Virus record (IMG/VR): IMGVR_UViG_3300020179_001470
Span: 1-64,000 of that record
From: a virus
Reading direction: 5' to 3' (one strand)
DNA: 64,000 nucleotides
Every line of letters begins with the position of its first letter. The first letter of the stretch is position 1. Below are positions 43,565 through 48,475 of the stretch, in pieces. The notes beneath the pieces are model-generated. The model was given only the letters and a program-made list of their open reading frames with translations, was not told where the DNA came from and made no database searches. A program made the position numbers and the translations under genes.

Positions 43565-43984
43565 ATGGGATACTCAGATTTAGTAATTGACCACTACACC
43601 AATCCCCGTAATGTAGGAACATTGGATAAATCCAAATCGAATGTTGGTACGGGATTAGTTGGAGCTCCTGAGTGTGGTGATGTAATGCGTCTACAAATTG
43701 AGGTAGACGAAGATACGGGTATTATAAAAGAAGCAAAATTTAAAACATTTGGATGTGGTTCTGCAATTGCTTCATCATCATTAGTAACTGAATGGTTAAA
43801 GGGTAAATCAATAGATAAAGCACTTACTATTGATAATATGGATATAGTTGAAGAACTTAATCTACCGCCAGTCAAAATACATTGTTCAGTTTTAGCTGAA
43901 GACGCTATCGTTGCGGCTATAGATGATTACAGAAAAAAACAAGGTCTCAAAGAATTGATTAATAATAAAACAATTTTATCATAA
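43565..43984 (+). CDS. iscU: IscU-type iron-sulfur cluster scaffold
   Basis: 139 aa, NifU N-terminal type. The cluster ligands are present: Cys37 in GAPECGDVM (with Asp39), Cys64 in KTFGCGSAIASSS, and His106-Cys107 in LPPVKIHCSVLAEDA. The LPPVK loop recognised by the HscA chaperone is present, indicating IscU rather than SufU. Followed 7 nt later by iscA. The desulfurase would be the host's. Confidence 0.93.
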   Translation: MGYSDLVIDHYTNPRNVGTLDKSKSNVGTGLVGAPECGDVMRLQIEVDEDTGIIKEAKFKTFGCGSAIASSSLVTEWLKGKSIDKALTIDNMDIVEELNLPPVKIHCSVLAEDAIVAAIDDYRKKQGLKELINNKTILS

Positions 43985-43991
43985 ATTTTAG

Positions 43992-44315
43992 ATGATTACA
44001 GTATCAGAATCTGCATCAAAGAAATTAAATTTACTAATAGAAGAAAGTGGATGTGTAACACCATTTGTGAGGGTTGCGGTAAAAGGGGGTGGATGTAGTG
44101 GTTTATCTTATGACCTATCATTTGATACAGAACAAAATATAAACGACACATTAGCGGAAGATAAGGGAATAAAAATTTTGGTGGACAATAAATCTTTATT
44201 ATACCTTTGTGGCACCGAATTAGAATTTTCTGATGGGTTAAACGGAAAAGGTTTTCAATTTATTAATCCCAACGCTAGTCGAACCTGTGGATGTGGGGAA
44301 TCATTTTCAATATAA
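43992..44315 (+). CDS. iscA: A-type Fe-S carrier (IscA/SufA/ErpA)
   Basis: 107 aa HesB-like protein. Conserved cysteines: Cys35 in GGGCSGLSY, and Cys99 and Cys101 in SRTCGCGESF. It would receive clusters from IscU and deliver them to targets. Forms a two-gene unit with iscU. IscA, SufA and ErpA cannot be told apart by eye. Confidence 0.9.
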   Translation: MITVSESASKKLNLLIEESGCVTPFVRVAVKGGGCSGLSYDLSFDTEQNINDTLAEDKGIKILVDNKSLLYLCGTELEFSDGLNGKGFQFINPNASRTCGCGESFSI

Positions 44316-45895: not shown

Positions 45896-45926
45896 TTTGG
45901 AAATCTCAAAAAATACATTACATTTG
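45896..45926 (+). promoter_or_regulatory. Promoter of the RNA leader, CRISPR array and nuclease
   Basis: TTTG 45896-45899, a 19-nt spacer and TACATTTG 45919-45926. Transcription would begin about 45933 and run through the structured leader, the array and probably the nuclease gene, all on the plus strand. No other promoter this good is seen before the nuclease. Confidence 0.8.
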
Positions 45927-45990
45927 TATTGTAATTGTTCTTTGAAATATTGGAAACTTCAATATATTATTTCATCAGAGGTAAAACTTT

Positions 45991-46097
45991 GGTGGGGGTG
46001 GTTGTACACCCCATAGTGAATCCTGAATAAACAGGGTGGAATTTATCTGGAGATTAACTTCTCACTCACTAAATACCTTTTATTTTTAAATAAGGGA
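45991..46097 (+). ncRNA. tracrRNA-like structured leader (scaffold copy U)
   Basis: This stretch is a diverged duplicate of the sequence across the 3' end of the nuclease gene (48341-48430). Shared features are a hairpin GGGGUG-GUUGUA-CACCCC (45995-46012), a CCUG...CAGG hairpin, a GAGA...UCUC hairpin (46050-46063) and the invariant tail CTCACTCACTAA. It then continues into TAAATACCTTTTATTT, almost the 5' half of the CRISPR repeat, and AAATAAGGG (46088-46096), which can pair with CCTCTTATTT of the repeat over 9 bp (one G-U). It therefore looks like a tracrRNA with an anti-repeat. It also still reads CTPHSES in the nuclease C-terminal frame, which suggests descent from a duplicated gene end. 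Confidence 0.7.
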
Positions 46098-46140
46098 ATC
46101 ATTCACAATATGTTGATTCGTAATAAGATGGGTTAACCAT

Positions 46141-46894
46141 GTTGTAAATACCTCTTATTTGAAAGGTGTATACAACTGGTTTGAACTGTTTGCACCTCCC
46201 TGAAGAGTTGTAAATACCTCTTATTTGAAAGGTGTATACAACTATGACCAACAGAACTTGATGTTAAATCAAGTTGTAGATACCTCTTATTTGAAAGGTG
46301 TATACAACTGAAATTCCACCTAATGACTGGAATCCAGGTTGTGGATACCTCTTATTTGAAAGGTATATACAACGTTAATCCTCTTTGATTGTGAGGTTAT
46401 GTGTTGTGGATACCTCTTATTTGAAAGGTACATACAACCGATGAACCGGGTCCTTATCAAATTGAGAGCGTTGTAAATACCTCTTATTTGAAAGGTGTAT
46501 ACAACGCAATAACCCAATTCCATAATTACGGTATAGTTGTGGATACCTCTTATTTGAAAGGTGTATACAACAGAGAATGATTCAACGGCCATTCCAATAA
46601 GTTGTAGATACCACTTATTTGAAAGGTGTATACAACGTCACTTGTGGCCACTAAATCTGTTGTAGATACCACTTATTTGAAAGGTGTATACAACATTTGT
46701 TCTTTATGTTGATGTGGAGGACGCACTGTAACGCTAAGGTTACTGGTTGTAGATACCTCTTATTTGAAAGGTATATACAACTAGTCGTATTAGTACCGAT
46801 ACTACAAAAACGGAAAGGTATATACAACATGTAGACTCTTGGGTGTTGTGTTAACCACGTTGTAGATACCACTTGTTTGAAAGGTATATACAAC
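46141..46894 (+). CRISPR. CRISPR array, 36-nt repeats, 11 full and 1 truncated
   Basis: Repeat consensus: GTTGTAAATACCTCTTATTT plus GAAAGGTGTATACAAC. Repeats start at 46141, 46207, 46273, 46338, 46403, 46470, 46536, 46601, 46659, 46746 and 46859. A 3' half-repeat lies at 46813-46828. Spacers are 29-31 nt except one of 22 nt (46637-46658) and one of 51 nt (46695-46745). Repeats fold into a long hairpin (GTTGTA/TACAAC outer stem, ATACC/GGTGT inner stem). Early repeats match best; later ones carry GTTGTAGATACCAC and GGTATATAC changes, so the leader end is at 46141 and the distal end is ageing. Confidence 0.95.
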
Positions 46895-46974
46895 TTTAGT
46901 CCAGTCATCCAAAGGAAAATTTGGTTACCACTTGAAGTTTTTAATATGACAATGAACATAAACCCGAACATGAC

Positions 46975-48405
46975 ATGCCAATAATCACAAGAAAAATCAA
47001 ATTGATTGCGGTTGGTGAAACCAGCAAGGACAAAACCGCATCGTACAACTATGTTAAAAGGATTGCATCCGATTTAACTCAGGTGGGTAATGAAGTTATT
47101 CGTCTTCACGTTTGTAATCAATATGAATTGGATAGATTAAAATCATCCATGAACATATCCAAGGGTGATGCAATCAAGATTTTTCAAGAACAGATTGGTA
47201 CATCAGTTCAGAACAGTGGTTATCAAATGTTAACCAAGTTTCCATATATTGCTTCAGATATTAGAACAAACTTCAATCAGAAGATATTCAAAACCATTAA
47301 GGAAAACTTTCACGACATCATGAACAGCAAGATGTCGGTACCATCATTTAGGAAGACATCCATATCCATTCCGTTCAGTGGTGTAAAGGCGGGTGAATGT
47401 GTATTATTTGTTGATGATGATGATGAACATATGTTTAACTTTCCTTTATCATCATCGGAAAAAAGTATTCATAAGGAAATTAAATTCAGATTACATTATG
47501 GTAGGGACCCCAGTAACAATCGTGTCATTGTAAATAGGATTTTGGATGGGACTTATAAGATGAACGGGAGTTCCATTCAGATTGACGATAACGATTTGTA
47601 CTTGTTGTTGACCTGTGATATTCCTGTAAATGTATCCAATAATATGGACCCCAATAAGGTAATGGGAATTGATTTGGGTATTAACCGACCGGTATCAATT
47701 TATATTGATGGGGAGAAACGTCAACCATCACAAATTCAATTGGGTGAGAAGATTCAATCTGAAAGGATGAGGTTCTACAAACAACGTAGAGCACTTCAAC
47801 AATCCATGAAGTTTGCCAAGGGTGGACACGGAAGAAAGAGAAAGATGTTGGGGATGGAAAAACTAAGGGAAAAGGAATCCAATTGGGCTACTCTTATGAA
47901 TCACAACATCAGTAGGGAGGTTATTAATATTGCGCAACAATATAATGTGGGCATTATTAAGATGGAGGATTTAACCGGTATAACCACGAACAAGAATGAT
48001 TATTTTTTAAAATCGTGGGCATACTACCAACTTCAGACCGACATTGAATATAAAGCGAAGATGGTTGGAATTCAAATTCTGTGGGTAAATCCAAAAGACA
48101 CATCCATTACATGTCCAACTTGTAAGAATGTGAATAAGGAGAACAGAAATGATAAGGATAAAACCAAGTTCTCTTGTGTTAATATAGAATGTGATGATTT
48201 TGGTAAACTAAAGGATGCTGATATCACCGCAGCACACAATATTACTTATTCTGAAGGTTCTGATGTGAAAGGTAAGAGTAAGAAAGGTAGATTATTAAAA
48301 GGTATTCAAAAGAAACAAGACATTTTCATCACCACAAGTGATGGGGTTGGTTGTACAACCCATAGTGATTCCTTGTATAAACAGGAGGAGGTAATCTCGG
48401 AGTAA
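46975..48405 (+). CDS. Compact Cas12/TnpB-like RuvC nuclease
   Basis: 476 aa, predicted RNA-guided DNA endonuclease. RuvC-I is MGIDLGINRP (Asp233), RuvC-II is IIKMEDLTGI (Glu331), and RuvC-III is DADITAAHNI (Asp416). A zinc ribbon lies between II and III (Cys380, Cys383, Cys401, Cys406). WAYYQLQTDIEYKAKMVGIQ and VNPKDTSITCPTC are hallmarks of the TnpB/Cas12 family. Residues 1-220 should form the REC/wedge lobe. Size lies in the TnpB/Cas12f/Cas12n range, far below Cas12a or phage Cas-phi. It lies 80 nt after the array. Its last 65 nt also form part of a scaffold RNA. No cas1, cas2 or tnpA is seen. Confidence 0.9.
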   Translation: MPIITRKIKLIAVGETSKDKTASYNYVKRIASDLTQVGNEVIRLHVCNQYELDRLKSSMNISKGDAIKIFQEQIGTSVQNSGYQMLTKFPYIASDIRTNFNQKIFKTIKENFHDIMNSKMSVPSFRKTSISIPFSGVKAGECVLFVDDDDEHMFNFPLSSSEKSIHKEIKFRLHYGRDPSNNRVIVNRILDGTYKMNGSSIQIDDNDLYLLLTCDIPVNVSNNMDPNKVMGIDLGINRPVSIYIDGEKRQPSQIQLGEKIQSERMRFYKQRRALQQSMKFAKGGHGRKRKMLGMEKLREKESNWATLMNHNISREVINIAQQYNVGIIKMEDLTGITTNKNDYFLKSWAYYQLQTDIEYKAKMVGIQILWVNPKDTSITCPTCKNVNKENRNDKDKTKFSCVNIECDDFGKLKDADITAAHNITYSEGSDVKGKSKKGRLLKGIQKKQDIFITTSDGVGCTTHSDSLYKQEEVISE

Positions 48406-48475
48406 TGGACTCACTCACTAAGTACTTTTCAAAGGTGTATACAACTAGTAGAATGTCAAATGATGATAACGGAAG
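48341..48475 (+). ncRNA. omegaRNA/reRNA-like scaffold fused to short repeat and guide (copy D)
   Basis: Overlaps the nuclease 3' end. Hairpin 1 is GGGUUG-GUUGUA-CAACCC (48344-48361), hairpin 2 CCUUG...CAGG, hairpin 3 GAGU-AAUGG-ACUC (48400-48412) containing the stop codon, then CTCACTCACTAA. It runs straight into TAAGTACTTTTCAAAGGTGT followed by ATACAAC (ending 48445), a shortened CRISPR repeat. After that comes a guide-like tail beginning TAGTAGAATGTCAAATGATG. This scaffold-repeat-guide order in one RNA is that of a TnpB omegaRNA or a natural single guide. The 3' end is set arbitrarily at about 30 nt of guide. Confidence 0.7.

What the first reader, a model, noticed from the sequence alone, without database searches (positions are those of the whole stretch)
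45991..48446. The same scaffold RNA exists twice: before the array and across the end of the nuclease gene
Sequence 45991-46080 and 48341-48427 share blocks such as GGTTGTACA, ATAGTGA, ATAAACAGG and CTCACTCACTAA in the same order and spacing. The downstream copy spans the stop codon of the nuclease, exactly where TnpB omegaRNA lies. The upstream copy lies where a tracrRNA would. Read as protein, the upstream copy still gives CTPHSES against CTTHSDS in the nuclease C-terminus, so it is probably a duplicated gene end. This is the arrangement predicted if a transposon guide RNA was split into tracrRNA and crRNA.
Basis: partly seen in the sequence, partly recalled or inferred. Interest (0 to 1): 0.95.

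Follow-up and report, generated by a model that had tools for sequence, protein, structure and literature searches.

The report
Phage Cas12f with two guide-RNA scaffolds
A bacterial virus carries a small CRISPR nuclease whose guide-RNA scaffold is encoded twice, once as a separate helper RNA before the spacer array and once as a one-piece guide across the end of the nuclease gene, so both stages of a proposed evolutionary step survive in one locus.

Summary
The two copies (45988-46084 and 48337-48433) align far above chance, and a covariance model finds both and only both in the 72.9-kb record. Both fold alike: hairpin 1, a closed three-hairpin stem, then an anti-repeat. Across 11 scaffolds 95% of pair cells hold and 19 pairs show changes on both sides (0/500 shuffles). 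The hairpin-1 loop can pair with the repeat's 3' end. The nuclease is a Cas12f (best structure Al3Cas12f) with intact RuvC residues.
Related loci form a graded series. Nuclease-dead Bacteroidota Cas12f and phages L011 and L208 have the scaffold only after the nuclease. L189 has it on both sides, each copy with its own array. The window and L001 have a split, tracrRNA-type copy upstream and a fused single-guide copy across the stop codon. L005 and L069 keep only the upstream copy. This supports a one-piece guide being duplicated and split.
The "duplicated gene end" idea is wrong: the odd C-terminus is translated scaffold.
Caveats: no transcript, cleavage or target data. Splitting of transposon guide RNAs was already proposed (TranC, recalled). 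What is new is a phage Cas12f locus holding both forms.

The parts
45896..45926 (+). putative Bacteroidota-type promoter (TTTG-19 nt-TACATTTG) of the upstream scaffold and array
   Evidence: sequence; similar TAnnTTTG boxes precede the scaffold in L005, L069, L007 and L208 by eye; consensus from general knowledge, not tested
45936..45962 (+). conserved leader GTTCTTTGAAATATTGG..; one arm of an inverted repeat flanking scaffold plus array
   Evidence: similar leader in L001, L005, L069, L011, L007, L208, L189 by eye
45988..46084 (+). upstream scaffold = putative tracrRNA (hairpin 1, closed stem with three hairpins, anti-repeat AAATACCTT at 46071-46079)
   Evidence: CM R1 109.5 bits; covariation
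46141..46894 (+). CRISPR array: 11 full repeats (GTTGTAAATACCTCTTATTTGAAAGGTGTATACAAC and variants) and one truncated repeat, mostly 29-31-nt spacers
   Evidence: no protospacer found
46932..46958 (+). second arm of the inverted repeat, between array and nuclease
   Evidence: 27 nt, 81% complementary to 45936-45962; analogues in L001, L005, L069
46975..48405 (+). Cas12f-type nuclease, 476 aa; RuvC D233, E331, D416 and zinc-finger C380/C383/C401/C406 present
48337..48433 (+). downstream scaffold overlapping the nuclease 3' end and stop codon (TAA 48403-48405 lies in hairpin 4)
   Evidence: CM R1 86.8 bits; third codon positions identical to L001 in 22/22 same-residue codons against 224/337 elsewhere
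48431..48445 (+). repeat-derived handle AAAGGTGTATACAAC fused to the downstream scaffold
48446..48475 (+). putative fixed guide of the downstream single-guide RNA (TAGTAGAATGTCAAATGATG...)
   Evidence: position after the handle; target unknown

Best explanation
A phage-encoded compact type V (Cas12f) CRISPR system in which the nuclease has two sources of guide. The upstream copy is transcribed as a tracrRNA; its anti-repeat pairs with the repeat in array-derived crRNAs, and the hairpin-1 loop (GUUGUA) pairs with the repeat's 3' end (UACAAC) next to the spacer. The downstream copy, made from the 3' end of the nuclease transcript like a TnpB omegaRNA, carries scaffold, handle and one guide in a single molecule. 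Both arose from an ancestral one-piece guide RNA behind the nuclease. That unit gained repeats, was duplicated upstream, and there lost its own handle, so that it now works in trans. Shown: sequence homology, conserved structure, phylogenetic order, intact catalytic residues. Inferred: transcription, loading of both RNAs, DNA cleavage, and use against competing phages or host DNA.
For: Homology of the copies. Covariation over 11 scaffolds: 95.3% of cells paired, 19 pairs with two-sided changes, 0/500 shuffles and far above every slid version. Loop and handle covary (GTTGTA/TACAAC in window, GTTGTG/CACAAC in L189), and anti-repeat and repeat covary (AUACC/GGUAU against CAACC/GGUUG). The downstream copy is constrained as RNA: all 22 same-residue codons identical at the third position to L001 against 66% elsewhere, Fisher p 1.8e-4; an A-U to G-C compensatory change spans the stop codon (48401/48411). 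Series: downstream only in nuclease-dead Cas12f L090-L093 and L095, L011 and L208; both sides in L189, L001 and window; upstream only in L005 and L069. Tree order L011, L208, L189, then window/L001 plus L005/L069. L001's second downstream repeat matches the L011 repeat at 33/36 but its own array at 27/36. Cas12f identity. No Cas1 in the record.
Against: No RNA data. Spacers have no known target. The array repeat folds on itself, which would compete with the tracrRNA. The downstream copy folds no better than its shuffles when folded alone (z -0.67) and has no promoter-like sequence of its own that I recognise. Only two genomes share the exact window arrangement, and L005/L069 do without the downstream copy. 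All phage records are metagenomic and may be fragments. For the split copies the covariation alignment joined tracrRNA and repeat artificially.
Confidence: 0.75

Rival explanations
1. Only the upstream tracrRNA and array work; the downstream copy is a decaying leftover of the ancestral downstream unit, kept because it now encodes the protein C-terminus.
For: L005 and L069 lost it; it lacks its own leader; the second repeat behind it in L001 has drifted; weak fold alone.
Against: Third codon positions are frozen (22/22), pairing is kept by compensatory change, the handle ATACAAC is intact in both genomes, and the encoded peptide is predicted disordered.
Confidence: 0.25
2. The upstream copy is a duplicated nuclease gene end that became a tracrRNA.
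For: In-frame CTPHSES against CTTHSDS.
Against: Orthologues lack this peptide; the upstream scaffold is as similar to the non-coding scaffolds of L069 (77%) and L011 (71%) as to the downstream copy (71%); in L189 both copies are non-coding with the same leader.
Confidence: 0.04
3. The upstream-only state is ancestral, and window/L001 and L189 each gained a downstream copy later.
For: Window upstream and downstream scaffolds share CACTCACTAA against CACTCACTCAA in L005/L069; the two copies of each genome resemble each other somewhat.
Against: Outgroups L011, L208 and five nuclease-dead Cas12f loci have downstream-only scaffolds.
Confidence: 0.12
4. A recently inserted IS200/IS605 TnpB element with an ordinary omegaRNA beside an unrelated CRISPR array.
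For: Pfam and PHROGs call it a transposase; the RNA overlaps the gene end as in TnpB.
Against: Cas12f/Cas12u3 profiles score far better (282 bits) than guided TnpB (151.5 bits); the scaffold handle equals the array repeat; the layout is conserved in relatives at 52-76% identity.
Confidence: 0.03

Closest known systems
Cas12f (type V-F; PADLOC Cas12u3/Cas12f), especially Al3Cas12f (PDB 9nzo/9nzr, PMC13186708)
   Same: Protein family and fold, array, tracrRNA next to the gene
   Different: To my knowledge these systems are described with one tracrRNA; here the scaffold occurs twice, once fused to a handle and guide across the stop codon
Nuclease-dead Cas12f of Bacteroidota (PDB 9n9c family; L090-L095)
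   Same: Nearest cellular clade in the tree; related scaffold with a similar hairpin-1 loop and ATACAAC-like handle directly behind the gene
   Different: Single one-piece guide, no array seen, RuvC motifs degraded
TranC transposon-CRISPR intermediates (LaTranC, PDB 9jfq; Jin et al. Cell 2025, recalled, not held)
   Same: Guide RNA functionally split into tracrRNA and crRNA, with the one-piece form usable too (recalled)
   Different: Different protein lineage (9jfq only rank 38, E 5.6e-8); here a phage Cas12f with both forms as separate copies
TnpB omegaRNA/reRNA (for example ISDra2, PMC8612924)
   Same: Guide RNA overlaps the 3' end of the nuclease gene
   Different: No transposon context identified; scaffold continues into a CRISPR-repeat handle
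Phage-encoded type V-U/V-F systems (Al-Shayeb 2020, PMC7162821)
   Same: Compact nucleases and short arrays, mostly without Cas1/Cas2, in large phages
   Different: The word tracrRNA does not occur in that paper's main text, and no doubled scaffold was seen in the passages read

Membership tests
Cas12f (type V-F) | Full-length match to Cas12f/Cas12u3 profiles and Cas12f fold | tested here: met
Cas12f (type V-F) | RuvC catalytic residues and zinc-finger cysteines | tested here: met
   D233, E331, D416 and C380/C383/C401/C406 conserved
Cas12f (type V-F) | Adjacent CRISPR array and tracrRNA with anti-repeat | tested here: met
   (at sequence level; transcription not shown)
Cas12f (type V-F) | Acts as a dimer, cuts DNA at a T-rich PAM | not testable with these tools
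   no targets, no biochemistry
TnpB with omegaRNA (IS200/IS605) | Guide scaffold overlapping the 3' end of the gene | tested here: met
   stop codon inside hairpin 4
TnpB with omegaRNA (IS200/IS605) | Nuclease within a transposon with recognisable ends | not tested
   neighbours are phage genes; element ends and TnpA were not searched for systematically
TranC (split-guide intermediates) | Belongs to a TranC protein lineage | tested here: not met
   Cas12f structures rank 1-20; LaTranC rank 38
TranC (split-guide intermediates) | Uses both one-piece and split guides | not testable with these tools
   both forms are encoded; use not shown

The most novel reading that the evidence does not exclude
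One nuclease runs two guide programmes: array crRNAs with the tracrRNA for defence or competition, and a dedicated one-piece RNA across the stop codon with a fixed guide for a separate, possibly regulatory, target, so that nuclease and fixed guide are always made from one transcript.
Probability: 0.2. Interest if true: 0.78.

Novelty: new variant of a known kind. Interest (0 to 1): 0.62.

Why it matters
How one-piece transposon guides became tracrRNA plus crRNA is a central step in the origin of type V CRISPR systems. Here related phages show, around one nuclease clade, fused-downstream, doubled and split-upstream states, and the window holds fused and split forms together. The step can be tested by swapping natural parts instead of engineered ones. 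The fused copies are also natural single-guide RNAs for a compact Cas12f.

Tried and rejected
Repeat hits L006, L008, L010 and most pattern hits L050-L075 and L156-L194 were chance matches. The scaffold model over 395 Bacteroidota genomes found nothing at 1e-4 (strict filters; one search then showed weak matches beside nuclease-dead Cas12f, so that empty result shows little). Spacers and the downstream guide gave no protospacer in nine phage records or INPHARED. Rfam: nothing above gathering score. Cas1 absent (one sub-threshold scrap in L189's record). 'Duplicated gene end' rejected. The TranC paper is not in the library, nor the 2023 PNAS survey of TnpB and Cas12.

Full report
Observation. 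The window holds, on the + strand, a scaffold-like sequence at 45988-46084, a CRISPR array at 46141-46894, a 476-aa nuclease at 46975-48405 and a second scaffold at 48337-48433. The two copies align with score 80; 2000 shuffles reached at most 27 and no other place in the window exceeds 26. A covariance model finds both and only both in the whole 72,946-base record.

The RNA. All copies fold as hairpin 1 (6 pairs, loop GUUGUA or a variant), a closing stem GUGA/UCAC that holds hairpin 2, a variable hairpin 3 and hairpin 4, then an anti-repeat. On 11 scaffolds, joined where necessary to the array's repeat half, 95.3% of cells pair, 19 of 33 pairs have changes on both sides, and no shuffle of 500 reaches this; slid controls fall to 33-49%. 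Two parts of the evidence link scaffold and repeat. The hairpin-1 loop is complementary to the repeat's last six bases, and both change together in L189 (GTTGTG/CACAAC). The anti-repeat and repeat also change together. Joining split copies was an analytical device; it leans towards the structure for those rows.

Two kinds of copy. The downstream copy runs directly into AAAGGTGTATACAAC (48431-48445), the 3' half of the repeat, and then a putative guide: a natural single-guide RNA. The upstream copy has the anti-repeat but no working handle, is preceded by a leader and a promoter-like sequence, and is followed by the array: a tracrRNA. The downstream copy overlaps coding sequence. In the last 25 codons, which overlap it, all 22 same-residue codons are identical to L001 at the third position, against 224 of 337 elsewhere (Fisher p 1.8e-4), and an A-U pair became G-C across the stop codon. 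This argues for selection on the RNA, not only the protein.

The nuclease. PADLOC Cas12u3/Cas12f (282 and 276 bits), PDB Al3Cas12f (265 bits by profile) and Foldseek rank 1 Al3Cas12f (E 1.2e-26; model pLDDT 79, pTM 0.52) make it a Cas12f. Catalytic residues and zinc-finger cysteines are present. NCBIfam also scores it above its TnpB cut-off (151.5 bits against 100), as expected for relatives. No Cas1 was found.

Relatives and order. L001 (310 kb record, 76% identity) has both copies; its downstream copy is followed by a spacer and a second repeat that matches L011's array repeat (33/36) better than its own array (27/36). L189 (246 kb, 52%) has both, each with nearly the same leader and each with its own array of different repeats. 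L005/L003 (63%) and L069 (58%) have only the upstream copy and shorter proteins. L011 (40%) and L208/L176 (43%) have one copy behind the gene, then an array. L007 has scaffold plus array without a nuclease in its 91.5-kb fragment. In the tree the phage clade's nearest cellular relatives are nuclease-dead Cas12f proteins of Bacteroidota. In the clade L011 and L208 branch first, then L189, then window/L001 with L005/L069 (the root there is a midpoint and L011's place is unresolved in that run, but basal). L090-L093 and L095 carry a short scaffold of the same plan directly after the stop codon (weak model matches). The simplest history is: one-piece RNA behind the gene; repeats added behind it; the unit duplicated upstream and split; the downstream unit then kept (L189), reduced and overlapped by the gene (window, L001) or lost (L005, L069).

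The shared CTPHSES/CTTHSDS is not a duplicated gene end: four orthologues end before it, and the peptide is predicted disordered. The gene ran into the RNA.

Function. No protospacer was found, so the target is unknown. Phage-encoded compact type V systems, mostly without Cas1/Cas2, are known and thought to serve competition with other phages or host takeover (PMC7162821). Direct use of both guides is inferred.

Novelty. About 50 independent origins of type V systems from TnpB are inferred (PMC12669027). Guide splitting with dual use was, from my memory, reported for TranC; the library lacks that paper, but the LaTranC structure is in the PDB. The window therefore shows a known kind of transition in a new setting: a phage Cas12f clade with fused and split forms side by side and relatives on both sides of the change.

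Noticed in passing
window 45936-45962 and 46932-46958; L001 5423-5458/5958-5993; L005 4463-4491/4970-4998; L069 3963-3979/4566-4582: Inverted repeats flank the whole scaffold-plus-array unit in four genomes; the arm is the leader motif and its inverted copy lies just before the nuclease. Could be a processing stem or a mobile-unit border.
   Followed up: partly
L040 6045-6235: Flectobacillus Cas12f relative with degraded RuvC is followed by two tandem copies of a guide-like scaffold (GGGCGGTTCTACGTCCATAAGCTGAGGCG...).
   Followed up: no
L092, L093, L095, just downstream of the nuclease-dead Cas12f gene: The one-piece guides begin almost alike (GGCGTGGG.. or GCGTGGG..), suggesting a conserved target.
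   Followed up: no
L007 3696-4008: Scaffold fused to a handle plus a three-repeat array with no nuclease in its 91.5-kb record; the nuclease may be supplied in trans or lie beyond the contig end.
   Followed up: partly
window 46637-46828: Array irregularities: a 22-nt spacer, a 51-nt spacer and a truncated repeat; L069's array is largely decayed.
   Followed up: no
window 43565-44315: The phage carries adjacent NifU/IscU-like and (by eye) IscA-like iron-sulphur assembly genes.
   Followed up: partly
L189 7763-7858 and 9553-9652: The two scaffolds share leader and hairpin 1 almost exactly, but hairpin 2 is completely replaced while still paired.
   Followed up: partly
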